DNA of 64,000 bases from Argopecten irradians (Eukaryota; Mollusca; Bivalvia; Pectinida; Pectinidae). Below, one piece after another: positions 17,503-40,079 of this stretch. The notes below the pieces were generated by a model. That model searched no databases, had not been told where the DNA came from, and saw only the letters and a program-made list of their open reading frames with translations. Positions within the stretch are counted from its first letter, which is position 1. Each line of letters begins with the position of its first letter. Location: positions 26,086,452 to 26,150,451 of the forward strand of contig NC_091140.1 in NCBI RefSeq assembly GCF_041381155.1, in the 5' to 3' direction. The translations under genes and the position numbers were made by a program.

Positions 17503-17882
17503 CTATCGTGTCGAAGTCTTACGTGAACTATCACACCTCAGCACACGTGCGTGTTGTGATAATATGTGATTATTTAGACGTTCATCCGACGGAAACACAG
17601 CTCCACACTGGTCACACTTGACCACCTGACCACCATGACGTAACCGTACGTGAGCCAGCAGTCGACATGGTTCAGTGAAGCGAGAAGGACAATGTTGACA
17701 ATAAATAAAATCCTGGTTGTGTATCTTCTGATGTCGCTGCATTCTGTATTTGACCTGAGTTATGTAGTCACACCTGTCACATTCGAATAGCTGCTGTGTT
17801 GGGTTATGTACAGAGGAACCTCCTAGTAACCTTCGGCTCTTCGGCTTCCCTCTTTTGTTAACCGAGCCTCTAAATCGTCTGC
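17503..17882 (-). CDS. Alternative 3'-terminal exon, three C2H2 zinc fingers (exon A)
   Basis: The exon encodes 125 residues up to its stop. It has three C2H2 fingers at residues ~34-54, 61-82 and 89-110 (first motif C-x2-C-x12-H-x3-H, the others with H-x4-H), after a basic leader rich in Arg and Lys. It should be a DNA-binding end of a nuclear transcription factor. There is no convincing start codon. A pyrimidine-rich tract and CAG at 17883-17885 mark the splice acceptor, and the exon opens with GC completing a split codon (phase 1), like the five sister exons upstream on this strand. It is clearly paralogous to the exon at 20380-20753; both have the finger start ECDRCDY and the second-finger end LLAHVRLRH. 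C2H2 identity is certain. Membership of one alternatively spliced gene is inferred. Confidence 0.9.
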
Positions 17883-20379
17883 CTGAAAAGTACACGCAAT
17901 GCCAATGACATTACACATTTCCGGTATTGTTACCAATTCCAATCAACAGAATTTAATCGTACACTGTATATTGTAAACATTCGATTGATTTGATAACAAC
18001 ATGCCTCATAACTTATATGCAACTCAACCACAGACTAAGTATTTAGCATCAGTAATTATACAAATATTCTGGCAGACTTAATTGTTTCTCAGATACGAAC
18101 GCTATGTAGCTTGTATATATTGTGGTGGATAGAACTATAATATATCATATATTATAATGATTTAAGAATCACAACACTCACAAAAGCTTGGATTTATATA
18201 TGCCACGTCGTTACATAATTGATATTTTGCACTAATTGCAATTCTGATTAACGTTAAACTTTTTTAATGGTATGAACTGGCCAATAGGTGAATGCACATC
18301 ACATTCATCCAACTCTGAGTTATATGTATAGCCATTAGTAAGTATTGTCATTCTACCGTTCGTCCAGGACACATCATCCTCGCTCCCACGTACAAATCGC
18401 ACTGGCTTTTATTCACCTCTGCGAAAATAGGATTCATTTGATGCGGAATCATAACTATTTTTTGTTTATCTTATTACAAACAGTATTTTTGTTTTGATAA
18501 AGTATCGACATTATATACATTTTATAGTTTTGCTCGCTAACCTACATGCATGCATTTTTACATTGCCGTGAGAAAACCGCAGCAAATGTGTGGCCTTTGA
18601 CAATGCGATTTTACCAGGGACCAAGGTTGTGGATACATATGAAGTTATCGGTCCACGTCGCAGGTTGGTGGTATTCTTCAAGTATCCGAAACTCTTCATC
18701 CTTGAATGGTTACATTACTGTCAATAAGACTTTTTAAGTGTTTTGGTGACATATACCTTAAAACTTCAGTACCTCCAAAACTTTGATTTGGTTTTATCTA
18801 GAATGATATCCTGAATAGATTGTATTACAAAGGAAGCGGAATCTACAAGTATCTTTAATGAGTCTCTTGTGGACCTGTGGACCATTAATAATTCTAGAGC
18901 CCTTCTGATCAACTGCTATTCATCCCTTATTGTACTGCTTTATATTCAGTAACTAAGACATACACATAAATATTCAATATAACACTATAAAACATTTTAT
19001 TTTTTATTTGTTTTATTGAATCATAGACAGTTTATGTCCGTACATGGATGGTGATTAAGCCAATTTTATATACGACATAGACGAGTCTTATAAATATATC
19101 ATAGTCGCATGGGGAAATCAAATACATTTTCCATTCATTTTTAATGTTCTTAATCTGTTCTGTCTTCTTTTTTAACAATTAATGAACTGGGATAATTTTG
19201 TAGACTTCCACTTATAGATGTACATTAAAACTGCATCTGGTACTTTGGCCTGCAACAACCAACTTCATATTAGAATTATTATCATAATTATGCTCATAGA
19301 AAACGAATGCAGTATATCTTTTTAGTGTATTAGTTCTCAAAGTATTACTAAAAATCGACAACAACAGTTAATTAGGATAACAAATACGGCATATAATAAT
19401 AAAAGAAATTTGTAAAACGAACGATATACATTATCATATGATTAGACAAAGGTTTTGCAAAACCTTTAAAAAACTAAAATCAATATCTCGGGACCTTGGA
19501 AACACATGAATAGTTATAATTAAAACATTTCGAAAAATGAAAAACATTCCTTGACATCTATGAATTAATTTACTATCATTTACTGTTCGTTATAAAATAA
19601 ATGCATTTTAGTGGATTAGTAGAATAGTATCGTATAGTTATCTTTAAATGGTTCAGACCCGTGTTAATGCCAACACCAACTACATATTTTCAGTAGTTCG
19701 ATAGTTTCCAGAAACAAAAAAACCCTGATGACCTAAAGTACAATATAAAATCGTTATCTCCACATTCCAAGACCCGTCGAAAGTATTTCGACTTATCCGA
19801 AATGCGACTCAAGGGAAATTAATGACATGGAATCCGGAGATCCTCAACAAACCTATTAGCAAATTCAAAAGTCACGCGAAAATTAATATTTGGAATCGTG
19901 TTTGTCCCTCTGTAGAGCTTCTAAACATGTATTGAGCTATCCAATCGTATACCATATATTAAACATCACGTACTGTGAACTAATCATATTGGCTTTGGTT
20001 TTATTTTCGTGTCCTATTTTTTTAACATAAAATTAATGAACTTTCATCCAAATGATATATGATATTTTGATCCCCGCGAAATACTACCTTTTGTTAAATG
20101 TATGCAGGTATTCGTTGTGTTCGTAATCTAAACTCTCCGAAAGTTAAAATTTGTATAATATGTAATAAGCCTGCCAAAAAAACCCCAAAAAACTGAAAAT
20201 ACACAGCTTTACAACCATAACAAAAGGACACATACTCTATGAACACCTTGCCATCATACAAGTCGGGCGACGTTCCTAATCTCTTCAAGACATGATGAAA
20301 ACGACAGACTACCACTCACACGTCCTTTAATAATGTATTGGTTCTCTTGAAACTATCTTCACTTCATTCTGGAATGAAA
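17883..20379. other. Intron or intergenic DNA between zinc-finger exons A and B
   Basis: No coding exon is supported. The short frames on both strands at 18511-18737 and minus 20094-20315 lack splice context and family resemblance. For exon B this interval must also hold its 3' UTR. Confidence 0.55.
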
Positions 20380-20753
20380 CTAGAATTGTGGAAATGTTTG
20401 TGGAATATTCAATGACAAAACACGCGAGTGTTGTGTAGCCATGTGGTCGTTCATAGCTTCATCCGACGGGAACACGGCCCCACACAAGTCACACTTAACC
20501 ACTCGTCCACCGTGACGTAACCGCACGTGCGCCAGAAGTCGACACATTTCAGTGAACCGTGAAGGGCACGCGCTACAGTAGATGAAATCCTCATTGTGGA
20601 TCCGTTGATGGCGTCTCATTCTGTACTTTAGCTGAGTTTTGTAGTCGCACCTGTCACATTCGTACTTAGGCTTCTCTGTGGCAGGGGAATGTGATATTCT
20701 TTGGTTCTTTACATTGCCTGGTCGCTTTAGGGTCTGCTTTCCTAGCCGCCTAC
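20380..20753 (-). CDS. Alternative 3'-terminal exon, three C2H2 zinc fingers (exon B)
   Basis: It encodes 123 residues to the stop. Three C2H2 fingers lie at residues ~32-52, 59-80 and 87-108, after a basic leader that begins RRLGKQ. The acceptor is TTTACAG (AG at 20754-20755), and the first two bases (GT) complete a split codon in the same phase as the other five exons. It is closely related to exon A in finger number, spacing and sequence, so one arose from the other by local duplication. It is probably the DNA-binding C-terminus of one isoform of a multi-exon transcription factor whose shared N-terminus lies upstream on the minus strand. No start codon of its own is convincing. Confidence 0.9.
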
Positions 20754-23315
20754 CTGTAAACCAAATAAGTACTGCAATACATGGACATGTAAATCTATCT
20801 GTCACTTCATTAAGACTAAAATGTCGATATTATTATAACATTCAGGATGAACTATAGGTGACAACAATCAATAAAGCATGGATCCATTCTTAACAGCAAA
20901 AACATGACGTATTTTCAGAACGTAATTAAAGTGCAACCTTATTTTCTTTCCTGATTCGCATACTAAAAACGTTATAAGTTCTTATCATTCATATATTAAA
21001 TCATAATTGTAACTAAAATGATATTTTACAACCAAGTAGTTATCAGAAACACCCGGAAAGAGTTGGTAAAATTGATCGAAAGTCTGGACCTAAATGAACA
21101 GATTTGTAATCCGTAGCGACTTGAACCTGGGTTCTTTCTCTAGGAATTTAGTTATCTTTCATTTCGTGTACAGAGTATGGAATGAAAAAAGGGCAAAATC
21201 ATATAGAAATATATATTTATGCGTATCAATAGAACTCTTCCCTTTGTAACATCCTCTTGTTGACTATTATTATATTATTTTCTGGTCTCCTAGACAGAAA
21301 ACCGGAGTATTTGATGTTGATAGTATTGTAATATCATCATGACAGATATTATATCAATACATTTAGAACCATTTTATCCAATAACTATGAAACTTAATTT
21401 ACAGTGAAAACATAGTTTAATAGCCAGTAAACTTTTTTTAAAAAGCAAACTAAAAATGTAATTTCACATACATCTTTTCACGTTTTTACGTGCTTTTGAT
21501 TATTTTATGTTAATTTGCTCTGAAATTTGTATCCTATGTGTGGAAATAAATAAACGGGAAATAAATCAAGTGTGGTAAATAGGCAGATTGAAACACATGT
21601 ACTACTTTCAGTAGGCCTAGTCCAGACATAGGACAGAGACGTAAAGATGTAATAACTATAATGTTCCTTCTTTCTTGATAAATATACATTTCATCTCGTA
21701 AGGTTGGAACTTTTTATATTTGCGATCGTGCTTCGCACTCTTAAAAAATATCAAACTTTCCATCGATGAAATATAACTGTTATTCATCCAGAAAGAAATA
21801 ATATCCTCTATACATGTTTTGATCGTTTTAAGAAAAGAATATCGCTGTTACCTTCCAAATCTTTTGAACATCACAATAAAGTATTCTAGGTTGCATTAGA
21901 AAACTTCGAATACACTCGTACTAATTTGGGTGCAAAATTGATTTTTAACAGATTAGCGCAGTGAAGAATTTGCACATTCGTAATACAAATGTAATTATTG
22001 TACTAACGTTATGTAATATCTTAACGCAAAACGTCTAGCGCGATAGCTCTACAATATTGTTAGTGCTATTAACAGTATTTTGTGTTCTGGCATCATTTTT
22101 CTAAAGGTTATAAAGAGATACTATTGTACAAAGATCAGAACATCAGATTATTAAGTGAAGTAGACCATACAGCTATATCGTCCTTTATTGACTCATCTTT
22201 GGCGATGAAAGCTAATTCATAATAGTATTTTTTGTAAAAAAGTTCGAAATTACATGTCAGTGGAATATATGTCAATCACGAAACAGAAGATCCTGCCTAC
22301 AGATATATATCATATGGACTTCATTAAACGTCAATAAAGACAAATCGTACATCGAGTATAATGGATTGATTTATTTCAATTTCTTATTTTAAAGTCAGTG
22401 TAAGATATGATTTCAGATGTCAGGTCAAAAGCTATTTCATAATTAGACGTCAAAATATAAATGAGCTAAGGAAAATACAAGAAAATTCAATATGATTTTC
22501 TAGATGTATTGGAATACAAAATTGAAGGAGAACGAAGCAGGATGAAACTTGTCTGGTAAGTAACTGAAAATGCAAATTCACAAACAATTCTTGGTATAAT
22601 AGTCTTCCTGTCGACGCAAGTTTATTCAGTTTATATATTCGTTTAGTAAGCTCATCACATTAGTACGTGACTAGCATGACATCATATTTGTTCATTTGAA
22701 CTCAGTGTATAATCTATAAATAACTAAATTGTAACTTGATCTGCCAAGATGTCCTAGTTATTAAACCCAACTTCCGATAGAAAGGCATTTCAAAGGAGCT
22801 AAAGCGCACTTTTTGTATATGCAATCCGGATATATATGAAGGGTTGTTCAAGGATATTTAATCCATCGTTAACATAAGACCCTTGATGTGTTTTTAATGA
22901 TTGAGTTTTTTTTTAAATTATTATTTAGAATAATAACCAATAATTATCACAACATACATAAAGTTGGACGTAGTTATTCATTAGCATCCGATTTCAAGAA
23001 TCAGTTGTAAAAGACTAAAACTAAATGTAGAATTCATTGAAGAAATAAAAGTGGAAAAGAGATTCCAGCTGTGCTTTCCAAGAGCAAAGAGTATTTTCCT
23101 TCAACAATGAAAGTAATTGTTATGATTCTGGACATGATGCGTGTGACGTGTTGAAGAAAATAAAGTAAAAATTCGACATGAAAAGTATTTGTTATGAACT
23201 GAAAAATGGCTTTGCCTGATATTTCAGAACGTCATAATGAACATGCATGCTCCTTTTTGCAACTTTCTGAATTCTTTAGCACCGTAAGAAATTTGAACAC
23301 CACAACGTCATAATA
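20754..23315. other. Intron or intergenic DNA between exons B and C
   Basis: AT-rich, with no supported exon and no element recognised. Confidence 0.55.
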
Positions 23316-23746
23316 TCATAATTTATGAAAGACATCAATATGGTGCTGCAGATTCCCAAGTTTCACAAATGTTCGGTCTTTGCAGATAGTACAAGCGAAA
23401 CTCCTCTTAGGGTGTTCCTGGGCACGGTGATTCGATAATGAGTGTTTGGATGTAAACGATTTACCACACATTGGACAAACAACAAGTTTTCCTTCATGTC
23501 GAGATTGACGATGGGCTCTTAGCTCGCATGGCTCCGTAAACTTGGCTGAGCATAAGTCACACTTTATGTAATCCCCGCTGTGGATTTTCTGGTGCCGAGT
23601 CATCCTGTATTTTACGTTGGTTGCGTAAGTACAGATATTACACCGGAAAGCTTTTGACATTCCAACCGATGGCATTTTGGATAACATGCGTCCACTCGTT
23701 TTCCCCGGTCCATCCATGACTTTTCGGCAAATGTCGTGAAATCGGT
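23316..23746 (-). CDS. Alternative 3'-terminal exon, four C2H2 zinc fingers (exon C)
   Basis: It encodes 142 residues to the stop, ending FHKL. Four C2H2 fingers lie at ~35-55, 62-83, 90-111 and 118-140; the last has a widened Cys-His spacing (C-x2-C-x13-H-x4-H). The acceptor ATATTCCAG ends at 23747. The exon starts AC CGA TTT CAC, phase 1, reading (x)RFHDICRKV before an internal Met, which is therefore unlikely to be the real start. Its leader RFHD parallels RFND in exon D, and the finger block is the clear sister of exon D (shared LRAHRQSRHEG link). It is a nuclear DNA-binding terminus by family knowledge; the target is unknown. Confidence 0.9.
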
Positions 23747-24957
23747 CTGGAATATAAAAGTTTCAATAAACTTCCATATCCATCGTTACAATGAAGACAA
23801 CAAATGGTAACTTTGAGGGGTAAGGTTAGCATTGTCCATCAATCATTCAATATGAACAGAACAAACATTGAAATAAAACTATAGATAAAAACACAATAAA
23901 TTTAATTCTTTTCTTAAAATGGTTTTATACTTATCTAGTAACTACACTAATCAAGGTAAAACGATCATATTTTTCATTCATCTTTATTTCTAGGTATACA
24001 ATTGCAAACTAAAGTCTATGTTAAGATAACAACGAAAAGATACCTTTTAGTAACATGCATACACACTTTATCAAAATACACCAAGTCAATGTTCGAATCC
24101 ACTTTGTTTTCTCGTGATCGTGTTGTTGTTCATTTGTATAATCACCTCACAACATTTAGGATACAAAGCTATCAATATTCTTATTAAATTCAATTTAACG
24201 TTCCGTTCTTTGAAGCTGAAGGCGAAAAGTGTGTTTAAACTAAAACGTTTAATAAACTCAGAAATGAACTGTTATGAACTGATTTTGATACAACAATGGG
24301 CTAGTCCATAGACGATACCAATGGTAGGTCTGGATATAAACCATATACAAAGTCTCTATTGTTTAGTTATTTACAATGGAAACATAAGACCGGTCTATCA
24401 CCTACCCTTGGAAAACTCAAAAGTGTGCAATACTGTTGGCCTGGAGATAATATTTATTATTCTTACTTCTAAGGGTCGGCGAAAATTAACTTCGAAATAT
24501 CGTTTTTTAGTCCAGTTCCTTTGGCGAGATTGATCCCAGATAGTGTATTTAACTTATTCTTGTTATCTTCATGAATCATGCATCAATAGTAAATGTGATT
24601 CATGAAACTTTAATAATAAACAATGTTGTTGTTTATGAAAAGACACTGAACGTTCCTTTTAATCGCTGATTAAGAAATGTCTTTCTTCGTTTTCTCGAAT
24701 CATCTATACAATCATCTTCTAATTGAAGGCCTCGACCTTTCGAAAACCACATTCATCAATCACAAAACACACTTTTATCCTATTTGAAATCATTGATGCT
24801 TGGCCGATTACAATGCCCTTTGTTTGTAGTGAAACAATTCTTTATCTTTTTGGCAGAATTCACTCGCATCAATCCGAACTCCATTTCCGGACGATTGGAA
24901 GTTGCCTTGATTTGCCATTTGATGTTATGAATCTATGCAAGGCTGAGTTCCATAATT
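23747..24957. other. Intron or intergenic DNA between exons C and D
   Basis: No supported feature. Plus-strand frames around 24002-24965 have no family resemblance and no splice context. Confidence 0.5.
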
Positions 24958-25376
24958 CTACATGAAGACCTTATCCACATTATGGAAGGATTTTAAGTGG
25001 ATCATGAGCTTGCCCATGGTGACGAAGGTTTTATCGCAGTGATTGCAGAAGTAAGCCTTGTTGTGGTGGACTGTGGAGCGATGATGTGACAGGGCGTACT
25101 TGGAGGCAAATGAGCGGTCACACATCTCGCACTTGACCAACACCCCTTCGTGCCGGGACTGTCGATGAGCTCTTAACTCGCACATCTCCGTGAACTTATT
25201 GTTACACAGGTCACATTTAAAATAGTCTCCCTTGTGTATACGCTGGTGGCGCTTTATCCTGTACTTGTGCTCAGTTGTGTAGTTACATTGGTCGCATTTG
25301 AACCTTGCTCCTGTTTTCAATGACGTCACATTTGTCCTTCTCAATACCGACATAAGATGAGGATCGTTAAAACGTT
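24958..25376 (-). CDS. Alternative 3'-terminal exon, four C2H2 zinc fingers (exon D)
   Basis: It encodes 138 residues to the stop. Four canonical C2H2 fingers lie at residues ~27-47, 54-75, 82-103 and 110-131, with a short tail ending VDKVFM. The acceptor GTTTCAG (AG at 25377-25378) is followed by AA CGT TTT AAC, the same phase as the other terminal exons. An upstream in-frame ATG at ~25390 lies in the intron and would read through the acceptor, so I do not take it as the start. Fingers 1-3 align finger for finger with exon C and less closely with exons A and B. Confidence 0.9.
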
Positions 25377-25925
25377 CTGAAACACCAGACAAGGCAGTTC
25401 TTCAGTACATAATAAATAACCTATTTTTTCCTTTTTCATTTTCTTCATCGCGTCACAATGATTTTTTTTCCCCAAAAAAGATACATAGTCCTGATATTTT
25501 TTTTTCTAAAATGATCATGAATCCATCGGCAAGTTTATATATCTAGAATATTCCTGATTATATGACACAACTTTTCCCATATTATAAATTGAAGACAAAA
25601 TATAATATTATATAGTAATAGTCGAATTCATGAGAACATAAAACTTGGTAGACAGTCTTTAGACAAAGAACTTGTTTATTGAAACATTGTTCTACATTAC
25701 AGATGAATATAAAACATTTATAACTGTATACAGTGGATACCACATACCAGTCTCGAACTGCTGATGTAAAAGACATTCTGTGTATATCTTACAGAAAATA
25801 TGAACAGAATTAAAAATATCGCGTAATTCACGCTTACATATCAATTATATACATGTAAACGTCAATATTTATTTACTCATGAAAAAAGTTTCGTTTAAAA
25901 TCTATACAGCATACAATTAGCAATG

Positions 25926-26825
25926 AATAATTAAAGCTGACAACGCAAGTTAAAAAATGCAGTTGAAATGAAAAAAAAATATATATTAACGATTTTTTTT
26001 TCAAAAATTGTTTCTGAGACATCCCCTAGTTATGACAGTGTGGTATCTAATTATAAGGAAGCGGCAGCCATTTTTCTTTTGCTCTGCTTAGAAACCTTCA
26101 CTGGCCAGCCCCCTATATAAAGCACGGGACACTTGACACACGTGTATCATTCTAAACATGTCTTGTCTCAGATACACATGCCCCGATATTGCAAATAACA
26201 ATGTCAAATTGAAAATAAACACTGCACTCACCTGACAATATTTCATTGAAGTAATAGATGTGTTGTCAGCTATATCCCAACATATGTCCACTACGAATCA
26301 ATAAAACATTTCAATATACACTAAGTTTTACACGTACATGTACAACGACACACGTGTGTCCTTGATAGTTGTCGCTCGTTCGGGTCAGGTACGTAGTCAC
26401 GTGTATATGGTCAGTTGAGTGCATCGGGTACGATAACATACGTGGAGATATGTGGACGGATTATTGTTTGGATTTCTATTCATTTGCGTTGGAATTTTAT
26501 TTTGAGAAACATCTAAATGACAACTTAGAGGAGTTGACATGATTTCTTGCTAAAAAAAGTCCCATATAGTTTTACAGGTGAGGGTTTTGTTTACCTATTT
26601 GTAGGTGATATAACCTGTGGACTGCTAGGTGTATAGGTACATGAATGAGCGCACGTGTGTCGATTCACGCGCTTTATATAGGGGTCGGTGAGTCGTCGGA
26701 ATGTAAAACAAAAATGGCTGTCCTCAACCGGGGAATGTCTCATAAACGATTCTTGAAAAAACGAGTATACTTATTTAAAAAAAATCATTTTAATAATTTT
26801 AACTTGCATTGTCAGCTTTAATTAT
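25926..26825. mobile_element. ~0.9 kb element with long imperfect TIRs, each holding a TATA box
   Basis: The arm 25926-26151 is an imperfect inverse copy of 26641-26825. Both contain AATTAAAGCTGACAA, GAGACAT, GCCATTTTT and CCCCTATATAAAG or its inverse, then ACACACGTG. The TATA-like boxes are CTATATAAAG at 26113-26122 (plus) and at 26672-26681 (minus), so they point towards each other. No coding capacity and no clear target duplication were found. It lies between zinc-finger exons D and E. Confidence 0.65.
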
Positions 26826-27035
26826 AGTGATATAGGAAATATTATCCTGGTCCCCTGAATTGGAATCAACGGGGGAATATACAATATTTTCTTACAGAAA
26901 AGTTTGTTTCTGCGCATGCGACACAACAGACAAAGCAACAGATACAATTAAGAGATGACATGGATAAAACCTGTCGCAAACATATGTAACTGCCTTACAT
27001 CACTCTTATTGTAAACATATATAACCGCCTTCACT

Positions 27036-28745
27036 CTTAGTGTATTGGTAAATAATGCAAATAGAATGATAAGAACTAATCAGGTAAAAGGTTAACTTCA
27101 AGATTATATGTAAAACAGTATCCGTAGTAAGTCCCTATACACCAGCTTAAATTGATTATCAGCTTAAATTGATTATGATGATGATGATGATGATGATGAT
27201 GATAATGAAGATGACGACGACGACTATACAAAATTACGGGAATATTTGCATATGGCAAAAATAAATGGATTTACAATATTGAACACATTTACGACACTCC
27301 TCTATGTATGCATCATAGGGTTATTACCTGAATCACTTTTGAACCCTCTTAATTAAGTAATACAAAGAAATTTTTGCCGAGATTTAATAACAGTGATCGA
27401 ATTTTGATATAAATAGTTACCATTTCGATACCTGATCATTGATCAATGATATTGTACTTTTTACAAATATCATCAATTACTGTATTTTTATCAAACATTT
27501 TAATTTATCGCGTTTGTTTAAAAGTTAACAACTAGTATAAGAAAACAATACAAAAATAATATTAAATACAAAAGTATTTAAAGAAGTTATTCCAAACAAA
27601 TCCTCAGCATATGATTATGGCTTGACTAAATATCATCGCCCAAGGAAAGAACTGATAGAAAACGCTTATAATTATATGCTTTCTTTCTGGTAAATAATAT
27701 TGACATTGCAAATGAAATAATTCCTGTCATGAAGATTAAATTCATCATTAACAAACGAAGAAAGATAAAATAATTCAAGCATCATTGAATGTATAAAGCT
27801 CAATCCCATATATCCTCATAAACATTTGAGCACCTTTTATCATTTTTAGAAGATCTGACGCATTCACAAAATATTTGTTTTACTTGTCAGCAATTATTCT
27901 TAGTGTATTGGTAAATAATGCAAATAGAATGATAAGAACTAATCAGGTAAAAGGTTAACTTCAAGGATTATATGTAAAACAGTATCCGTAGTAAGTCCCT
28001 ATACACCAGCTTAAATTGATTATGATGATGATGATGATGATGATGATGATAATGAAGATGACGACGACGACTATACAAAATTACGGGAATATTTGCATAT
28101 GGCAAAAATAAATGGATTTACAATATTGAACACATTTACGACACTCCTCTATGTATGCATCATAGGGTTATTACCTGAATCACTTTTGAACCCTCTTAAT
28201 TAAGTAATACAAAGAAATTTTTGCCGAGATTTAATAACAGTGATCGAATTTTGATATAAATAGTTACCTCTTCGATACCTGATCATTGATCAATGATATT
28301 GTACTTTTTACAATTATCATCAATTACTGTATTTTTCATCAAACATTTTAATTTATCGCGTTTGTTTAAAAGTTAACAACTAGTATAAGAAAACAATACA
28401 AAAATAATATTAAATACAAAAGTATTTAAAGAAGTTATTCCAAACAAATACTCAGCATATGATTATGGCTTGACTAAATATCATCGCCCAAGGAAAGAAC
28501 TGATAGAAAACGCTTATAATTATATGCTTTCTTTCTGGTAAATAATATTGACATTGCAAATGAAATAATTCCTGTCATGAAGATTAAATTCATCATTAAC
28601 AAACGAAGAAAGATAAAATAATTCAAGCATCATTGAATGTATAAAGCTCAATCCCATATATCCTCATAAACATTTGAGCACCTTTTATCATTTTTAGAAG
28701 ATCTGACGCATTCACAAAATATTTGTTTTACTTGTCAGCAATTAC
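27036..28745. repeat. ~850-bp near-identical tandem duplication with (GAT)n tract
   Basis: 27036-27897 and 27898-28745 match almost base for base. Differences are a ~16-base internal duplication (TCAGCTTAAATTGATTA, ~27160-27177) in the first copy, a few single-base changes and small indels. Both contain a GATGATGAT...GACGACGAC microsatellite (27173-27221; 28020-28068). The high identity implies a recent event or an assembly artefact. Confidence 0.95.
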
Positions 28746-28995
28746 TACCTATTGCATGTAAACTATCAATTGAATGGATTGATGCATTGCGTTAGTATAT
28801 GTTGATAAGGTTTGTCGTGTTTCTGGTAAAACATTTAATGGATTCAAAATACATGTACATGTAAAATATTTCTGTATTCTAAAACTCTTGAAAATCATAC
28901 ATAATGTCACTTTAGTGCAATATTCACAATAGCATTCTTGTGTTGTATACCAACTTATTTTCCGGCGAAATAATTTCGATTTTTTTTTTTACTCC

Positions 28996-29067
28996 AATAC
29001 CATTTTTCGATTTACAATCATGAGATTTCTAAATACCATTTTTCGATTTACAATCATGAGATTTCTA
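28996..29067. repeat. 36-bp perfect tandem duplication
   Basis: The unit starting AATACCATTTTTCGATTTAC is present at 28996-29031 and 29032-29067. Confidence 0.95.
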
Positions 29068-29500
29068 AATATACATATATGTACATGTGATTAAAGCTAT
29101 TTCATAACAATCATTAATTTTCATTAAGTTTGTTTACAGATATTCGTATTTATACAAAAGTAAAATCATAACGAAAAGTACCACAGCAAATTCATGACAA
29201 CATTTCTCACGTTGAGCAAGCCAAATTTCCATCTGATGTAATAGATCGATTATAAATTTGATAGTCAATATAAAACACATAAAACATTCATTCCACATCA
29301 GAATTCCAGGTAAGCTAGGGAGCCAACATCAACTCTAGTCAAATATAGCCTATATCTAGACAGTCCGTGTTATTGGAATGCAAATGTAGTAATAAAACAT
29401 GAGAATGTTGTAATATGTACATGATGTATAGCTACAGTCTGGGTACGTGCCTATGTGAACTCTTGCAAGGCTGAGTAAATGACAATGTTAGTGTAAACAG

Positions 29501-29865
29501 CTATCCCGGTCCTCCACTGCTGAAAGACTGTGCAGCCAGAGATTGTGTGGTCGTTAGTGGCTGGACAAGTATCTCTGGTTGTTTATGGGTCATCTGTACA
29601 TGTTTCCTCAGCTTACAATTTTCGTTGAATCTTGCGCCACAGAGACTGCATACGTAATACTGTTGGTTGTGCATGATCATGTGACGTTTTAAACTGTAGT
29701 GGCGGTCCGTTACAAAGTCACACTCGGGGCAGGAATGGCGTTTTTTCATCTTGGGCGAAACTTCCGAGAAGCTCATGTCAAGGTGGTGACTAGATGAGTA
29801 CATCTGGGCGATACTTTCTTTGATGAGAAATGCATCTGATTGGCACGACTTCATAAACGTCACAT
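29501..29865 (-). CDS. Alternative 3'-terminal exon, two C2H2 zinc fingers (exon E)
   Basis: It encodes 120 residues. A ~44-residue Ser/His/Met-rich leader precedes two C2H2 fingers (~45-65 and 72-93), and a Gln/Thr/Ser-rich tail ends SSGGPG. The acceptor TTGGTTACAG ends at 29866. The exon starts AT GTG ACG TTT, the same phase 1 as all sister exons. It is the most divergent of the five zinc-finger ends (two fingers instead of three or four) but keeps the same spacing between fingers. The polar tail could be an activation or interaction segment; that is inference. Confidence 0.88.
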
Positions 29866-31931: not shown

Positions 31932-32932
31932 CTAATACACGTTTTCGGTAAAGCACTTGGCCGCGTCTTGGCCCGTTACAGAAAAGATCTGAGAAGCATC
32001 AAACATAATCTTGGAAAGAATGGCACATCCGGTGGTTCTGATAGAATAGTTGGTGTACACACACGATAACCCACAGGCTTTACTGAGCTCGGACATAAAC
32101 ACGCCCAGTTTCTTTTCCCCGACTGGACTGTTGTAGTACCAGATCTGGTACAGAGGACTTTCTTTGCTCGGTCTCTGCCACAAACGATCACACTGAGGAT
32201 TTAACCTTGCGAGGTAAGATTCGAAAGACGCAACCGGACAGAACGGCGAGCCAGGAGATTCTAGCATATAACGACCCAGCACGCCATCCCGATCGCACGA
32301 GTCTTTAATTTTTTTACCAGCTCTTTTGACGTACTTCAAACCTGTTCCAGTATCGGTCACAACCTCAAAAGTTGACTTGGTCATCTTGTGTATATTCTCT
32401 GTGCCTCCTTTACAGAAATACAAACGAATGTCAAACTGGACCTTGTTGTAAAGGCCAATAGGTGTACCGACATTCAGATGTTGTGAATGATACAAAACAT
32501 ACCGGTCCTCTGTAGTTATAACGGGGTGGTGCTCCGTCTCTCCTTTCCCTATTCGCTTCAGCTCGGTAATGGCAGCTTTAAAATTGGCGTTTGCTTCTGC
32601 AAATTCACAATCTCTGATAAGATCAAATTGTTTGTTGAATGGGGGACTCTGTAGGTACCTGTTTAGTGAATAGCGGAACTGATCCAGTGAAGAGGTTTTG
32701 TAATGTGTCCCGTCATGTTTACGAGCGTCCATGTAGAAGTGACCAAGGTGCTTGCAAAGGTCTGCAGTACTATACCGTTCAAAGTCGACGTCTTGCTCCT
32801 TTTCTCGCAAGTAGTCCCGGAAGATTACCGATGCCTTCCTATTGGCCTTTAACGTATTGTCCGTCTTGGTAACTCTCAGACGTTTGTCGGCTCTATCTCC
32901 AAATGTAGATTCTCCAAAGCGCTTCTGGGTTC
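31932..32932 (-). CDS. Alternative 3'-terminal exon encoding a DUF3504-like (Crypton-derived) domain (exon F)
   Basis: A single 1,001-bp exon encodes 332 residues to the stop. The acceptor is TTAATTATAG (AG at 32933-32934). The first two bases (GA) complete a split codon, followed by TQKRFGESTFGD, in exactly the same phase as the five zinc-finger exons. The body resembles the C-terminal DUF3504 domain of ZMYM2/3/4, QRICH1 and long KCTD1. That domain is thought to derive from Crypton tyrosine recombinases, and it includes blocks such as LRYVL-like HSQHLNVGTP, GSPFCPVASFESYLA and the C-terminal SIRTTGCAIL region. The recombinase His-x-x-Arg signature is degraded (YSIR), so it should be non-catalytic and probably mediates protein or DNA contacts. 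No clear Met start: the internal TTG/ATG codons lie well inside the domain. Confidence 0.8.
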
Positions 32933-33180
32933 CTATAATTAAACAGTAAACCTTTTACCATCTGTGTAAGTATGAAGTAAACAAAATAGAACGGACAATA
33001 ACCCGCATGGATAGAGAGACAGTTACGCCATACAAGTATTTCCAGCTTTGAAATGAAATTTTCATGAAGTTCAGGTAGTTTTGACCTATCAGTAATTCAA
33101 TGACAGATTTTGAAGTTCTTGTCATAATCCATCTGGTGTTTTGAAATCCTTTGTAACAAATGAAACTTAATTTTCTTTAG

Positions 33181-33216
33181 GATCCCAGATCCCACAGCAA
33201 GCAAACCTGACGACTG
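33181..33216 (+). CDS. CANX: Calnexin P-domain exon (type-1 repeat)
   Basis: A 36-base exon between TTTTCTTTAG and GTAAGT reads IPDPTASKPDDW, the type-1 proline-rich repeat of calnexin and calreticulin P-domains. The leading base belongs to the codon split with the missing upstream exon. The last two bases (TG) are completed by G of the exon at 34210. The arm domain recruits ERp57 and related partners in the ER lumen. No exon for the preceding lectin domain was found upstream. Confidence 0.88.
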
Positions 33217-34209
33217 GTAAGTTTACTTGGTATTTACACAATTTAGAAAAATGATACAATCAACAATTTTAGGTCACACATGTACGCTGTGTCAGAGTAA
33301 GGATTAGATTTTCAGGTGATATATCATTTAAGACGAGGTAGTTGCATAATGAAAACATTTCATATTTAAAAGGACTTCTATTATCGGATAAAACCATGTT
33401 TTCTGCTTAAAAATTACTACAGTCATACTATAAGATGAAATATGATTTATGTGTGTATGTGTGACTTTCACTAAGTGCATTATGATTCGTGTGTCAATAT
33501 ATGGCTGTCACTAATTGAATTATGTTTCTTGTGTCTATATGTGGCTGTCACTTTTAAAATGAAGTATGATTCATGTTTCTATATATAGCTGTCACTAAGT
33601 GAATTATGATTTATGTGTGTATATGTGACTGTCACTAAGTGAATTATGATTCATGTGTCTATATGGGCCTACCACTAAGTGAATTATGATTCATGTGTCT
33701 ATATGGGCCTGCCACTAAGTGAATTATATAATTATGGGCCTGTCACTAAGTGAATTATATAATTATGATTCATGTGTCTATATGGGCCTGTCACCCAGTG
33801 AATTATGATTCATGTGTCTATATGGGCCTGTCACTCAGTGAATTATGATTCATGTGTCTATATGGGTCTGTCACTCAGTGAATTATGATTCATGCGTCTA
33901 TATGGGCCTGTCACTCAGTGAATTATGATTCATGCGTCTATATGGGCCTGTCACTCAGTGAATTATGATTCATGCGTCTATATGGGCCTGTCACTCAGTG
34001 AATTATGATTCATGTGTCTATATGGGCCTGTCACTCAGTGAATTATGATTCATGTGTCTATATGGGCCTGTCACTCAGTGAATTATGATTCATGTGTCTA
34101 TATGGGCCTGTCACTCAGTGAATTATGATTCATGTGTCTATATGGGCCTGTCACTCAGTGAATTATGTTATATGTCTATCTGAGCCATTATTGTATTCTC
34201 TTCTTCCAG
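33217..34209 (+). repeat. Calnexin intron filled by a ~40-bp minisatellite (about 33440-34168)
   Basis: From about 33440 a ~40-base unit (GTGAATTATGATTCATGTGT, then CTATATGGGCCTGTCACTCA) repeats about 18 times. The copies are degenerate on the left and almost identical on the right. It occupies three quarters of the intron and stops about 40 bases before the next acceptor. Confidence 0.92.
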
Positions 34210-34323
34210 GGATGAGAGTGAGCCTGAGAAGATTGTTGATGAGGATGCCGTTATGCCCAGTGGCTGGTTAGAAGACGAAGTAGAGCTGATTCCCGATGCA
34301 GGAGCAGAGAAACCAGAAGATTG
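34210..34323 (+). CDS. CANX: Calnexin P-domain exon (type-1 repeats 2-3)
   Basis: A 114-base exon flanked by TTCTTCCAG and GTAAGC. After completing the split Trp it reads [19 protein letters not shown], then [19 protein letters not shown]. This matches two further type-1 repeats of the calnexin arm, here with V and M in place of the usual P and K of the second repeat. It ends again on a split Trp codon (TG). By phase it can join in frame both to a standard type-2 repeat exon, which I cannot find, and directly to the exon at 35699. Confidence 0.92.
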
Positions 34324-35698
34324 GTAAGCACACTAACATGTATAGTTTAAATACAGTAAAACCTTCCATCATACCTCTGTATAGAGACCACCTGCTTATG
34401 ACAACCTCTATCTTAGTATCCCAAATGGTCATTCATAGCACCATTTTACTTGTGTATAATTAAAGACCACTTGAAGACTACTTGGCTATAGAGACCACTT
34501 TTATTTTATCCCTTGGATAGTTTTTATCGACAGGTTTGACTATAGTTGAAATATTTCTTCATTCTATGCAAGAGAATATTGTAACACTTGTACATAAAGA
34601 TATTGTAAAAATTAGATAGTTTGAATGAAAGCATGGTTAAGTTTTTAATTGAAAATAAAAATTGCGTCAATGATTATGCAAACATCTTTCACAAAATTAG
34701 TTATCAAGTAGTTTACAGTGAACAGTGAACCCCAATAATCCAGACATCTTCGTTCCCAGCTGCCTGTATAAGGAGTTTTCTGGACTGCCAAAATTCTGTA
34801 TCTTAGTCAATATGTAACATTAGGTAATCCAATTCCCGATACTTCTGTTCAGACTGCAAGTTTTTCGGGCTACGGTGTCTGGTCTTTTTGTGTGGAGGAG
34901 GCGGGCAGCAGGGGGTCCACGGTTACATGTACGATTCTTGATGTGTTTACTAAAAATATGGTAATGAGATCCATATAACCGTGTGTAGAATATATTCAGA
35001 CATTATATGTTTTACACTATTATAGTTCCAACTTGTACTTTGATGAGAGGACGGTTGATATGGACTGGTGTTGGGGAGGGGTCTTTCATCAGTAAGTAAT
35101 TAGATAGAGATGTTGATTGGATAACAACGTAAGTACTTCTCACAACTTAGTATATAATAGTGGTAGAGCATAAACTACCAATTGTTGTTACCAATTCTGG
35201 ACTTATAGTATGCCTCCTGGTGTATGAAGTCTTTGTTTTGTTAGTGCTATGATATCTTCTATCTGTTATTGAAAATCCATGTTTGTATTCGCCTGCCTCT
35301 CTCACGTGTCAGAACGCGCGTGGATGGGGATTAATTGGGAAAAATACCAGAGAGTGAAGAATCCCAAAATTACAAGGGCAAATGGGTCAGCCTCCTATCA
35401 TTGATAAACCAGGACTACCAGGTGTGGAAGTGATAGGATTTTCACTCATTAGAAAAAAGTAGTATAAAGATTCCGTTATTTATGTTAGGTTTTACTGTTT
35501 GATTTTTGTATGTCATGTGTGTATATTTTTCCTTCATGTCTTGTAAGACTCTTTTGGATATATACTTCTGAAGTAATATTTAGATTTCAATATCTCATCA
35601 CTTGTTTATTTTTTATATGTTGTATGGAAATTCACTAATTAATATGTTTATATTATTAGGGGACTATGAAAATTGCATATTAATCTGTTATTTTCTAG

Positions 35699-35774
35699 GG
35701 GAGGATGGAAGCCAGGAAAGATTGACAACCCAGCCTACTTTGAGGAACTTGAGCCATATAAAATGACATCCATT
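35699..35774 (+). CDS. CANX: Calnexin exon: last type-2 P repeat and return strand
   Basis: A 76-base exon between TTTTCTAG and GTAAGT. Its first G completes Trp, and it then reads GGWKPGKIDNPAYFEELEPY followed by KMTSI. This is the final type-2 repeat (GxWxPxxIxNPxY) and the segment leading back into the globular lectin fold. Calnexins normally have several type-2 repeats before this point. Only this one is visible, so the arm encoded here would be shortened. Confidence 0.92.
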
Positions 35775-35963
35775 GTAAGTTCTTAATATCAACATTTTAA
35801 GAATATTGAATTCTTATATTCCTATTGCTTTTTTTTTTTTTTTCATTGAAGCAGAAAAACCAATGCCTTAAATGTTTGAAATAAATTTTCACATGATGAA
35901 AACCTATTGCTGGAATGTGGTAAAGTTGTAGAATATTGAAGTGAATGCTGATTTGTTTCACAG

Positions 35964-36108
35964 GGTGCTGTCGGACTTGAGTTATGGTCCATGAATGACG
36001 ACATTGTGCTTTTGACAACTTTCTGATCACAGACGACAAAGCTGTAGCTGAACAATGGGCAGTGGAGACTGGGAGATTAAAGCTACACAAGAAAAGGCCA
36101 AGTCAGGG
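35964..36108 (+). pseudogene. CANX: Calnexin C-terminal lectin-fold exon with two frameshifts
   Basis: A 145-base exon between TTTGTTTCACAG and GTGTGT. It starts in frame as GAVGLELWSMNDDIV, a hallmark calnexin block. Frame is then lost at 36010-36016, where CTTTTGAC has two bases more than family spacing allows (DNFLITDDKAVAEQW follows in the shifted frame). It shifts again at ~36068-36072, where ACTGGGAG lacks one base relative to the expected ETWEIK. The net change is +1, so the exon length is not a multiple of three although its neighbours require phase 0 to phase 0. Both sites lie at or beside short homopolymers, so assembly error is as likely as true inactivation. I describe the breaks only. 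Confidence 0.85.
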
Positions 36109-36360
36109 GTGTGTAATAATTGAAATCTAAGACAGCAAAACAACAGTGTGCGGTATTAAATGTTGATTTACAAGTGGATTATTTTTAAGAGCACACTCTT
36201 ACTAATTTGATTTATTGTACTTTTAGATCTCTTACGCTACAGAGAACATCAAGATTTGTTACCATATTGAAATTTAGAAAAAAAATCTTGGTTATACAAA
36301 TATTTGAGAAATTTCATCTATGATTTATCTATGATTAATGATGGAATCTTTAGTCAGTTA

Positions 36361-36450
36361 GATATTTTGATGGAATAGCTTGTACATACAAATATTTTGA
36401 TGGAATAGCTTGTACATACAAATATTTTGATGGAATAGCTTGTGCATACA
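36361..36450 (+). repeat. 30-bp tandem triplication in calnexin intron
   Basis: The unit ATATTTTGATGGAATAGCTT plus TGTACATACA occurs three times in a row; the third copy has a single change (TGTGCATACA). Confidence 0.95.
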
Positions 36451-36586
36451 AATCAATAGTGATATCAGAAATTATGTAAAAGATTTAAATCTTTCTTGAA
36501 ATACTCATATTCTTGGTCTGACAGCAAGTATTTGATGGATTTTAAAGAATTAACCCTGTGACTCAATCAGATAAATTCTATTACAT

Positions 36587-39226
36587 GTACTTGCAAAACT
36601 TATTTTTCAAATAGCGTATGTATTATCCTTCAGGTAAAACTTAGACTAATTTATTGTTTGATACATGATGTTAACTGTTTACCTCAAAATCTAGTTGGCT
36701 CCATACTGCTGAGAACAATCAATACACAAGAAATATCTATAATTTTTCAGAAAAATGGCATACTGCTTTTTAAAGTTCTGAACAATATATTTAGTCAATC
36801 TAATTAAATCAAGATGCCCAGTTTAATACTATTATAATTGTAATCGATTTTAATTGTTTAATAACAAAAAATAATCCAATATTAGATTCTTGTTTACGTT
36901 AGATCGACACGTGAATATTTGAGAAACAGCTAAACGATCGATCATATGCAATTATATTCTACTACTAAACAGGATTGGATTTGTGTCTACAATTCTAAAC
37001 CTAAATAATAAACAAATTTACGTACATTTGCCTGGCAAAATGAACTTACGATCGTGATTAAACTTCAAAGTGCCGATCAACTAGTAGTGTTGCTTTTACA
37101 CATGTGCATATGAATTCGAAAATGGCGGCAGGTGATGAAGCCATGCGTTCACTCTGACCTAAATGTCTTTTGAGAATTCTCCCTGTATTGTTGATCTATA
37201 CGGCGAATAGCTTGATAACATTTCAGAAATTAATGCATATTCAAGTAGCAATGAAACAATTAACGTAGCAGGTATCTTTTGTATCCTAAGCTTACATACT
37301 GTGCGAAACTTGCGGTAGTCATTGCACGCCGACTTTGCATGCTTTTATGTCTCGTTCAACGAGACGCTTGATACGCACATGTCTGTCGTAGTCAACAAGA
37401 CTCTGGTTGAACGAGACTACTCATGAATGGCGATTGTTGTAAGGAAGCATGGTTTCTCCAACCGATCGCGAACTAAGGTACGTTACGTTAATAAATAAAC
37501 ATATTTCAAAGTGCAAATGCTTTAATTAGATGTTTGAGTCAGTGAATATACTAAAGTTATGATCAACCGCTGCTGATGTAAATCGTAACAGCGTCGAATA
37601 ACTTTGCAGATTCATGCATAAAATAACAAGCCATACGATAACGTTTAATCTGTCACCATGTGATGATTTCTAGTAAAAGCGAAGTATTTTGAAACATATA
37701 TCGGCGAATTTCACTAAAAATATATTGCAAAATTGAAAAATATTCGATTTTATTTTTAGAATTTCCCAAATATTTTATTATCCCCCGCCCAACGAAGTTG
37801 GCGGGGGATATACAAATGGGTTCCGTCCGTCCGTCCGTCCGTCCGTCCGTCCGTCCGTCCGTCCGTCCGTCCGTCCGTCCGTCCGTCCGTCTGTCCGTCC
37901 GTCCGTACGAATGGTTTCCGGAGCATAACTCTAAAACCAGTAGAGATATTTCCACGAAACTTCATACACACATTGGTCTTATGGTCTAGTAGTGCCTTTT
38001 GCTATTTTAAGGTTTTCACGTTTTGTACTTTTTTCTGTAACCATAGAAACATTGCTGAAAATAGCAGATTTTTGTACCAGGTTCGTTTCCGGAGCATAAC
38101 TCTAAAACCAGAAGAGATATTTCCACGAAACTTCATAGACACATTTGTCTTATGGTCTAGTTGTGCCTTTTGCTATTTTAAAGTTTTCACTTTTTGTACT
38201 TTTTTCTGTAACCATGGAAACATTGCTGAAAAATGGCAGATTTTTGTGTAGAATCGTTTCCGGAGCACAACTCTAAAACCAGCAGAGATATTTCCATGAA
38301 ACTTCATAGACACATTGTTCTTATGGTCTAGTAGTGCCTTTTGCTATTTTTAGGTTTTCACTTTTTGTGCTTTTTTCTGTAACCATAGAAACATTGCTGA
38401 AAATATCATCATATTTTTGTAGTAGGTTCATTTCCGGAGCATAACTCTAAAACCAGCAGAGATATTTCCACGAAACTTCATAGACACTTTCTTTTTATGG
38501 TCTAGTAGTACCTTTTGCTATTTTCATTTTTTGCACTTTTTCCGTTACCATGGAAACATTGCTGAAAATATCATGGTAAATGGTAAGTGGTACTTTGCAA
38601 AACTCCACCCATCTTTGTGTATATAGTCTAATATAAATTAATGTCAAGGCTGTATACCTGATTCAACAATTGCAGCCCCACTCTACTTGAATTATACTCC
38701 ATCTTTCTTTAGCTCAACTTCCTTTTTCCTGTTTTCTTTCCATACACATAAGTCTCTACAATCAAACTTACTTCAGCTTTGATATCTCCATTGGCGGGGG
38801 GATCTGAATGACTATGTCCTTGTTCAAATAACCGGAGGTCATGTAAAAGTCTATGCAAATACACGGAGTTGAAAAACAAAGATAAAGAAGGAAAAAATCG
38901 GGACCGCAGAATTTTATGCAAATAACCGAAATATTCGAATAACCGTTATGCGAATATGTGGAGTCCTCTGTACTTGCAAAACTTATTTTTCAAATAGCGT
39001 ATGTATTATCCTTCAGGTAAAACTTAGACTAATTTATTGTTTGATACATGATGTTAACTGTTTACCTCAAAATCTAGTTGGCTCCATACTGCTGAGAACA
39101 ATCAATACACAAGAAATATCTATAATTTTTCAGAAAAATGGCATACTGCTTTTTAAAGTTCTGAACAATATATTTAGTCAATCTAATTAAATCAAGATGC
39201 CCAGTTTAATACTATTATAATTGTAA
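36587..39226 (+). repeat. 257-bp direct repeats flanking a 2.1 kb insertion in one intron
   Basis: 36587-36843 and 38970-39226 are the same length and read identically (start GTACTTGCAAAACTTATTTT, end ACTATTATAATTGTAA). They bracket 36844-38969, which contains a tandem-unit element and other non-coding DNA. All lie in the intron before the first transmembrane exon. Confidence 0.93.
37776..38640. mobile_element. Tandem-unit element: GC hairpin head, (CCGT)n, four ~170-bp units
   Basis: It starts with a hairpin (ATCCCCCGCCCAACGAAGTT at 37780-37799, closing with GGCGGGGGAT). A (CCGT)n tract at 37823-37905 follows, then about four units of ~170 bp beginning GTTTCCGGAGCATAACTCTA (37914, 38084, 38249, 38429). 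The architecture resembles bivalve pearl-type elements. The Ser-Val-Arg-Pro repeat frames over the CCGT tract are not genes. Confidence 0.8.
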
Positions 39227-39292
39227 ATATCTATTGGTCAAGTCTGATGAATATATTAACATGAACTGACGATTTGTGCCCTGACTTTTCAG

Positions 39293-39418
39293 AGAAGTGT
39301 TGTTGATGCAGTATTAGATGCTACCAAGGATAGGCCTTGGCTATGGGCAGTCATACTCGTAGTTGTTGTACTGCCCATTGTTCTGATCATAGCTTATTGC
39401 TGTATGTCTAAGTCTGAG
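39293..39418 (+). CDS. CANX: Calnexin transmembrane exon, version 1
   Basis: A 126-base, phase-0/0 exon (acceptor CTGACTTTTCAG, donor GTAAGC) encodes 42 residues: RSVVDAVLDATKDRPWLW, a hydrophobic stretch (AVILVVVVLPIVLIIAY), then CCMSKSE. The RPWLW entry, the Pro in mid-membrane and the juxtamembrane Cys-Cys match type I membrane calnexin. In vertebrates that Cys pair is palmitoylated. It anchors the chaperone in the ER with its tail in the cytosol. Confidence 0.93.
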
Positions 39419-39947
39419 GTAAGCCTGATAGGTTAAACATAGGATTGGATATGTAATGATGGAACTCACAGCATCAGTGTGCTCTACCTGATTTGTGGCA
39501 CCAGATTCTCTCTAAACTGGTAACGATACAACATATCCATGTGCTTAAGTATGACTGGTAAAGACGGCTGGGTGTTCTGATGCTGAGAGTTGGTGTTGTA
39601 CAGCTTGCTTTCACCAGGAGAGGAATGTTTAAACCAAGGTTTACAAGGTCTATTCTCATTTCACCACTATTCAATTAAAATCAGTTGCTTAAAAAAGTAA
39701 TAAAAAATTATCTCAATAGTTTTTAGACCAAAATAAAAATATTCTAGTAAAATCAGTTGCATAAAAACGTAGAGAAATGATTTTCTAGTAAAAAAAATTT
39801 GCCCAACATAATAAGAATATGTTGACTGTGTTGATAGTGAAAATGCAGCAGATTTGAGAATGGACCTGTAAATCTATGGTTGATATCAGCCTGTCTGGTG
39901 AATTTTATGTAACGCATGTTGACATGTTGGTTTTGTTATGGATACAG

Positions 39948-40079
39948 AAGAGCATCTGGAAGACCCTGCACTCGGCAGCTGACCAGTATCCATGGCTCTG
40001 GGCCATTTATATAGTAGTTCTTTTACTGCCAGTACTCCTGCTCTCCATCTGTCTGTGCCCACGGACCGGACCCATCACG
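39948..40079 (+). CDS. CANX: Calnexin transmembrane exon, version 2 (tandem alternative)
   Basis: A 132-base, phase-0/0 exon (acceptor GGATACAG, weak donor GTACTG) encodes 44 residues: KSIWKTLHSAADQYPWLW, then a hydrophobic AIYIVVLLLPVLLLSI and CLCPRTGPIT. It is a second complete copy of the transmembrane unit, with PWLW and the mid-membrane Pro kept, but with CLC instead of Cys-Cys. Equal phases allow either exon to be used alone. If the donor is skipped the frame reads on to VLTPSHDVF and a stop at ~40108, giving a tail without the basic ER-retention end. Use by the transcript is inferred, not shown. Confidence 0.82.

What the first reader, a model, noticed from the sequence alone, without database searches (positions are those of the whole stretch)
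17503..29865. Five C2H2 terminal exons, all in one phase: a lola-like alternative 3'-end array in a mollusc
Seen: five minus-strand exons (17503-17882, 20380-20753, 23316-23746, 24958-25376, 29501-29865). Each starts right after an AG with two bases completing a split codon, ends in a stop, and encodes 2, 3 or 4 fingers without a credible start codon. A shared phase in five out of five has a chance of about 1 in 81. Established: insect lola, broad, fruitless and tramtrack use one BTB N-terminus with many alternative zinc-finger ends. Inference: this locus uses the same logic, with DNA specificity swapped by choice of last exon.
Basis: partly seen in the sequence, partly recalled or inferred. 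Interest (0 to 1): 0.75.

Follow-up and report, generated by a model that had tools for sequence, protein, structure and literature searches.

The report
Scallop gene with swappable DNA-binding ends
This stretch of a scallop-like genome holds six alternative last exons; in scallops, matching exons are predicted to be joined one at a time to a single shared front part, a layout like that of the fly genes lola and mod(mdg4) but with an apparently unrelated front part.

Summary
In detail: five minus-strand C2H2 exons at the stated coordinates, each with an AG acceptor, two bases finishing a split codon, and a stop. A sixth of the same layout was missed: 31932-32932, a DUF3504-like exon.

In scallops, predicted isoforms share a front part of about 370 residues and differ after one junction. 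The 17 such proteins found carry ten kinds of end by my grouping, all starting with G, D, E or V, which GNN codons encode. Exons 24958, 23316, 20380 and 31932 match four of these ends (72-80%). The front part shows no BTB domain and is not in the window.

So this is part of a lola/mod(mdg4)-like alternative-last-exon locus, not a lola relative. Helix contact residues agree with other scallops at 95 of 96 positions and differ between exons mostly in fingers 3-4, so specificity is partly swapped. The 1-in-81 argument fails because the finger exons are paralogues. No transcript data were seen; the own-genome search did not complete.

The parts
31932..32932 (-).
   Evidence: Acceptor and same phase; Pfam DUF3504 E 1.6e-4, below cut-off; 73% identical over 328 columns to the end of Mizuhopecten isoform X2, P0128, whose own DUF3504 match passes the Pfam cut-off (34.8 bits against 29.7). 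Ends about 30 residues earlier than P0128.
29501..29865 (-). Terminal exon, two C2H2 fingers
   Evidence: 72% identical to the start of Ylistrum model P0001. No isoform with the shared N-terminus was found for it, so its membership rests on strand, position, phase and finger homology.
24958..25376 (-). Terminal exon, four C2H2 fingers
   Evidence: 80% identical to the end of Pecten isoform X6 (P0002) and 76% to Mizuhopecten X7 (P0004).
23316..23746 (-). Terminal exon, four C2H2 fingers
   Evidence: 72% identical to the end of Pecten isoform X7 (P0003).
20380..20753 (-). Terminal exon, three C2H2 fingers
   Evidence: 74% identical to the end of Mizuhopecten isoform X10 (P0005).
17503..17882 (-). 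Terminal exon, three C2H2 fingers; paralogue of 20380
   Evidence: 65% identical to P0005, which matches 20380 better; dN/dS against 20380 is 0.19 with dS 1.2.
23142..23240 (+). Inverted near-copy of the splice-acceptor region of exon 24958 (minus 25457-25364); possible pairing partner in the RNA, function unknown
   Evidence: blastn E 1.8e-10, 72% over 100 columns; duplex -54.8 kcal/mol against -41.9 for the best of 15 shuffles; 43/55 ungapped matches against at most 32 in 60 first-order random sequences.

Best explanation
The six minus-strand exons are alternative last exons of one transcription-factor gene of a scallop or close kin. Upstream exons, outside this window, encode a shared front part of about 370 residues in which no BTB domain is detected. 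The last shared exon ends after the first base (G) of a codon. It is spliced to one of at least ten last exons (eleven if 29501 belongs), each supplying the two remaining codon bases, a different end domain, a stop codon and presumably its own poly-A site. The shared part would set a common regulatory behaviour; the chosen end sets the target. Shown: exon anatomy, phase, homology to the ends of predicted isoforms, the shared front part in relatives, and conservation of contact residues. Inferred: that this species makes the same joins, where its front part lies, DNA binding, separate poly-A sites, and how the choice is made.
For: Predicted isoforms X1-X7 of Pecten maximus are 100% identical over the 368-residue query and have seven different ends. 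Three more scallop genera have the same N-terminus (87-92% identical); in Mizuhopecten and Argopecten it is joined to four different ends each, in Ylistrum one was found. 17 of 17 N-terminus-bearing proteins have G (10), D (4), E (2) or V (1) right after the junction, residues of GNN codons. A donor ending in G gives E for 24958 and G for 31932 and 20380, as in the matching isoforms P0002, P0128 and P0005. Four window exons match four of those ends. Contact positions agree with orthologues at 95 of 96, the other positions between second Cys and first His at 167 of 192 (seven pairs). dN/dS of 17503 against 20380 is 0.19.
Against: The shared front part is not in the window (tblastn to E 10 gave only chance matches), and neither are six of the ten end kinds. 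A plus-strand gene with calreticulin-family matches lies just upstream, so the front part is distant or separate here. The isoforms are predicted models; their transcript support was not examined. 29501 and 17503 have no directly matching isoform with the shared front part. The first residue of 23316 would be D where Pecten has G. In Ylistrum the 29501-, 24958- and 23316-like exons are modelled as one separate protein that chains all three (P0001).
Confidence: 0.85

Rival explanations
1. A variant of the best explanation: the exons are last exons of the same gene but in this species are reached by trans-splicing from a separate precursor, as at mod(mdg4), because the front part lies far away beyond an opposite-strand gene.
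For: The front part is absent from the window; plus-strand calreticulin-family exons lie upstream; in Ylistrum the front part and the finger exons are listed with different longest contigs (549,959 and 397,234). mod(mdg4) and lola use trans-splicing (PMC4667647 passages; PMC11426971 passages).
Against: In Pecten, Mizuhopecten and Argopecten the isoforms carry one contig length per species and run in one isoform series, as expected of one locus annotated in cis. A large intron with a nested gene would look the same in this window.
Confidence: 0.12
2. The exons form a separate tandem gene or genes: one multi-finger protein made by chaining several exons, as in Ylistrum model P0001.
For: P0001 chains homologues of 29501, 24958 and 23316 and starts at the ATG that is codon 4 of the 29501-type exon or next to it. 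That ATG exists in the window.
Against: Every window exon runs to a stop; chaining needs internal donors before the stops. In Pecten and Mizuhopecten the 24958-, 23316- and 20380-type ends are each joined singly to the shared front part.
Confidence: 0.06
3. The exons are pseudogenes or transposon debris; the DUF3504 exon is a stray Crypton copy whose phase matches by chance.
For: The surroundings hold repeats and, by eye, reverse-transcriptase frames. The DUF3504 exon lacks about 30 C-terminal residues of its Mizuhopecten relative.
Against: Open frames, 72-80% protein identity to isoform ends in other genera, contact residues conserved at 95 of 96 positions, dN/dS 0.19 for the one pair where it is readable. 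Mizuhopecten isoform X2 has the same DUF3504 end at the same junction.
Confidence: 0.03

Closest known systems
Drosophila lola
   Same: One shared N-terminus and many alternative last exons, mostly encoding different C2H2 fingers (17 of 20 isoforms; PMC11426971 passages).
   Different: lola has a TTK-type BTB N-terminus; here no BTB is detected. Ends here also include a DUF3504 domain and ends without a Pfam match above cut-off.
Drosophila mod(mdg4)
   Same: Shared N-terminal region of 402 residues and at least 30 ends supplied by alternative 3' exons (PMC5666082 and PMC11426971 passages); a front part that is not next to the ends recalls its split layout.
   Different: BTB plus FLYWCH ends and demonstrated trans-splicing; neither is shown here.
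Crypton-derived DUF3504 genes (WOC, ZMYM2/3/4, QRICH1, KCTD1, KIAA1958)
   Same: The 31932 exon matches the same domain, which in animals is a domesticated tyrosine recombinase, often in transcriptional regulators (PMC3212892 abstract).
   Different: The abstract names genes that contain the domain and says nothing of it as one of several alternative ends; the body was not read.
Scallop gene LOC117328731 (Pecten maximus) / LOC110455972 (Mizuhopecten yessoensis)
   Same: Window exons are homologues of its alternative ends.
   Different: The window has two exons like one end type (17503 beside 20380); six of the ten end kinds and the front part are outside the window.

Membership tests
lola/tramtrack-type BTB zinc-finger genes | BTB domain in the shared N-terminus | tested here: not met
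   Tested on scallop relatives: no Pfam match to the shared part at E up to 1 in P0002-P0005 and no BTB match in the other isoforms scanned (ten proteins at E 0.01; five at E 10). The AlphaFold model was too poor to use (mean pLDDT 35.8). TTK-type BTB is reported absent from Mollusca (PMC11426971 passage).
lola/tramtrack-type BTB zinc-finger genes | One N-terminus joined to many alternative terminal exons | tested here: met
   Met in scallop relatives by predicted isoforms; in the window species only the ends could be seen.
lola/tramtrack-type BTB zinc-finger genes | Ends in one splice phase | tested here: met
   Six of six window exons; 17 of 17 proteins with G, D, E or V after the junction.
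lola/tramtrack-type BTB zinc-finger genes | Transcripts of the alternative ends | not testable with these tools
   No RNA data for this species; the search of the window's own genome did not complete.
Scallop LOC117328731/LOC110455972 gene | Homologous ends at the same junction | tested here: met
   Exons 24958, 23316, 20380 and 31932 match P0002/P0004, P0003, P0005 and P0128.
Scallop LOC117328731/LOC110455972 gene | The shared N-terminus upstream on the same strand | tested here: inconclusive
   Not found within the window; it may lie beyond the window, which could not be searched.
DUF3504 (Crypton-derived) domain, exon 31932 | Pfam PF12012 match above cut-off | tested here: inconclusive
   Window exon 22.2 bits against a cut-off of 29.7; its relative P0128 scores 34.8.
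DUF3504 (Crypton-derived) domain, exon 31932 | Loss of most of the recombinase catalytic tetrad | not tested
   No alignment to active Cryptons was made; the AlphaFold model was poor (mean pLDDT 34.0).
mod(mdg4) | Trans-splicing of ends from separate precursors | not testable with these tools
   Needs allele-marked or strand-specific cDNA.

The most novel reading that the evidence does not exclude
Scallops evolved, independently of insects and without a BTB domain, a lola/mod(mdg4)-style gene. It swaps whole classes of end module on one front part so far found only in scallops and one unnamed sequence: several zinc-finger sets, a Crypton-recombinase-derived domain and ends without a recognised domain. 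In this species one choice (exon 24958 or 23316) may be steered by an RNA hairpin that pairs the 24958 acceptor with the 3' flank of 23316.
Probability: 0.6. Interest if true: 0.75.

Novelty: new variant of a known kind. Interest (0 to 1): 0.62.

Why it matters
Genes that join one regulatory front part to dozens of interchangeable ends are known best from insect BTB genes. A BTB-free case in molluscs would suggest that the architecture, not the BTB domain, is what evolution returns to. It would offer a second, independent system for asking how one splice donor chooses among many distant acceptors, and it would show a domesticated transposon recombinase used as one interchangeable end. The relatives are annotated under scattered names ('zinc finger Y-chromosomal protein-like', 'zinc finger and SCAN domain-containing protein 5B-like', 'transcription factor Ken-like'), which hides that they are one gene.

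Tried and rejected
BTB N-terminus: rejected. Separate zinc-finger genes: disfavoured by the shared N-terminus in Pecten and Mizuhopecten. Phase coincidence as evidence: rejected as stated, since the finger exons are paralogues. Poly-A signals as support: uninformative. AlphaFold of the full Pecten X6 isoform and of the DUF3504 exon: both too poor (mean pLDDT 35.8 and 34.0), so no fold search was made. Solved-structure search with exon 24958: only general zinc-finger proteins such as CTCF among the 60 of 99 shown. Other minus-strand coding exons above 33 kb: a codon-usage scan found none above its threshold except a simple repeat at 37.8 kb; the scan was trained on these few exons, and no domain scan of the minus strand there was made. 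Calreticulin-family exons on the plus strand among the finger exons: none at E 0.01 in 24.0-33.3 kb; 0-24 kb was not scanned with Pfam, and a pattern search with recalled calnexin motifs added nothing there. BEN domain in the P0124/P0127/P0132 ends: a source names P0127 so, but Pfam gave no BEN match up to E 10, only sub-cut-off CopK matches (E 0.011-0.059). General RNA pairing at acceptors: only 24958 beat its best shuffle; 17503 nearly equalled its own (-45.2 against -45.3), the other four fell well short. Papers: no such mollusc gene seen in the listings (searches returned nothing); the four gene identifiers tried are in no held paper. Searches were on splicing in general. A paper on cephalopod C2H2 expansions (PMC12513265, listing) was not opened.

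Full report
Observation. A scan for C2H2 motifs in all six frames found them at 17503, 20380, 23316, 24958 and 29501 on the minus strand, with 3, 3, 4, 4 and 2 fingers, plus one plus-strand match at 9145 that I take for chance. Reading the sequence shows, for each, a splice acceptor AG, two bases that finish a codon, and an open frame to a stop.

A sixth exon was missed. The 340-residue frame at 31932-32954 contains an acceptor AATTATAG, after which it reads GA ACC CAG AAG CGC TTT, the same phase. It matches DUF3504 weakly (22.2 bits, below the cut-off of 29.7). Its relative in Mizuhopecten, P0128, passes that cut-off (34.8 bits) and is 73% identical over 328 columns. DUF3504 is described as a domesticated Crypton recombinase (PMC3212892, abstract only). 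The window copy ends about 30 residues earlier than P0128.

The phase argument. One in 81 would be right for independent exons. These are not: the five finger exons align with 15 invariant columns, and two share 77% of 243 bases. Stronger evidence comes from relatives.

Relatives. A search with four exon translations joined as one query gave 773 proteins at E up to 1e-8, of which 120 were listed. The first five are scallop proteins and stand apart in score (189-466 bits, against 159 for the sixth); general zinc-finger proteins follow. Two Pecten maximus isoforms are identical up to residue 369 and then differ; two Mizuhopecten isoforms do the same. A search with residues 1-368 of P0002 gave 17 proteins at E up to 0.001: seven Pecten isoforms (X1-X7), four Mizuhopecten, four Argopecten, one Ylistrum, and one unnamed ENA protein at 30% identity. 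A profile search of four N-termini gave 15, all among those 17. These searches need shared exact words and limit length, so more distant relatives may exist.

Ends. Cut at the junction, the 17 proteins carry ten kinds of end by my grouping of pairwise matches: P0002/P0004, P0003 and P0005 (finger ends related to each other); P0121/P0129, P0122/P0130, P0125 and P0126/P0133 (other ends with one to three C2H2 motifs by pattern); P0128 (DUF3504); and P0123/P0131 and P0124/P0127/P0132 (no C2H2 motif, no Pfam match above cut-off). The first residue after the junction is G in 10, D in 4, E in 2 and V in 1, residues of GNN codons. The LOC number is shown for only some isoforms; I take the rest to be the same gene because the N-termini are identical and the contig length and isoform series agree. 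Because annotated isoforms of one gene share a donor by construction, this shows how the annotators joined them, not that each join was seen in RNA.

Matching the window. By tblastn the best matches are 24958 to P0002 (80%) and P0004 (76%), 23316 to P0003 (72%), 20380 to P0005 (74%), 17503 to P0005 (65%), 29501 to Ylistrum P0001 (72%), and 31932 to P0128 (73%). If the donor ends in G, 24958 begins with E and 31932 and 20380 with G, as in the matching isoforms; 23316 would begin with D where Pecten has G. The other six end kinds gave only finger cross-matches or chance matches, and the N-terminus gave only chance matches at E up to 10. Pecten and Mizuhopecten differ from each other at the 24958-type end by about as much (80%), so the window comes from a scallop or near relative. 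That is inference.

The shared part. It has no Pfam match at E up to 1 in P0002-P0005. Ten further proteins at E 0.01 and five isoforms at E 10 add only a sub-cut-off DUF2204 match (E 0.26) in two Argopecten isoforms. So it is not a BTB protein by this test; TTK-type BTB domains are reported absent from Mollusca (PMC11426971, passages). Conserved down to P0133 are a short N-terminal block (WEVDG..C.S.P...EQH.VKI), SYRNVSVIDLEH and VKAEPDD. The last reads like a SUMO-attachment site followed by acidic residues, which I recall and did not test. AlphaFold gave no usable model.

Specificity. Taking helix positions -1, 2, 3 and 6 (recalled convention), the exons read HYRR-ECEA-SYAH-TGKI (24958), VYRR-ECEA-SHSN-VLGQ (23316), LYRR-ECRA-SEAD (20380), VYRR-ECRA-SERN (17503) and RYSR-ECKK (29501). 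Against orthologues in three genera, contact positions agree at 95 of 96 and the other positions between second Cys and first His at 167 of 192 (seven pairs, three of them from the chained model P0001; 17503 not included). Each finger set is therefore kept. Between the first four exons, fingers 1 and 2 differ at one contact position each and fingers 3-4 at three or all four. The choice of end would shift the site, not replace it outright, among these exons; ends of other classes would change it more.

Selection. dN/dS for 17503 against 20380 is 0.19 over 92 codons, with dS 1.2. Of the other nine pairs, seven are saturated; the two that gave a value (0.18 and 0.55) rest on dS above 1.5.

Surroundings. 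A plus-strand gene lies upstream: a calreticulin-family match above cut-off at about 34.2 kb and one below it at about 35.7 kb, with exons at 33.2 kb and 41.2 kb that I assign by eye. The front part must lie beyond it, within a very long arrangement, or elsewhere. mod(mdg4) and lola are the precedents for trans-splicing (PMC4667647, passages). I cannot decide between cis and trans here. A search of the whole genome was attempted ten times and never answered.

A possible switch. The acceptor region of 24958 has an inverted near-copy 76-174 bases past the stop of 23316: 72% over 100 columns, E 1.8e-10, predicted duplex -54.8 kcal/mol against -41.9 for the best of 15 shuffles; none of the other five acceptors beat its best shuffle. 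It may hide that acceptor in transcripts reaching the 3' flank of 23316, or be debris of an inverted duplication. There is no second genome to test it.

Verdict. The exon array is real and, most likely, belongs to a gene organised like lola and mod(mdg4), in an animal group for which I saw no such report in the listings. Passages of PMC12111275 describe oyster transcription-factor splicing, including two genes with alternative terminators that change C-terminal residues, but no many-ended locus in what I saw. It is not a member of the insect BTB family. New variant of a known kind.

Noticed in passing
23142-23240 (+) and 25364-25457 (-): Inverted near-copy of the 24958 exon's acceptor region, able to pair with it in the minus-strand transcript; cause and function unknown.
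   Followed up: partly
about 33180-41400 (+): Calreticulin-family matches at about 34.2 and 35.7 kb, and exons at 33.2 kb and 41.2 kb that look calnexin-like by eye; the N-terminal lectin part was not found in 24.0-33.3 kb.
   Followed up: partly
27035-28632: Tandem duplication with spacing of about 850 bases and 99-100% identity between exons 24958 and 29501, so recent.
   Followed up: no
about 33480-34200: Array of about 60-base repeats beside the calreticulin-family exons, seen by eye.
   Followed up: no
49983-52091 (+): Two adjoining frames that look like a non-LTR reverse transcriptase by eye, separated by a stop at 51300-51302.
   Followed up: no
31932-31965 (-): The DUF3504 exon diverges from the Mizuhopecten end in about its last dozen codons and stops about 30 residues earlier.
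   Followed up: partly
P0001 (Ylistrum): A gene model that chains three homologues of these terminal exons without the shared N-terminus; either a prediction artefact or a real chained isoform.
   Followed up: no
36652-36756 and 39035-39139: Identical spurious translated matches 2,383 bases apart, suggesting another duplication near the calreticulin-family exons.
   Followed up: no
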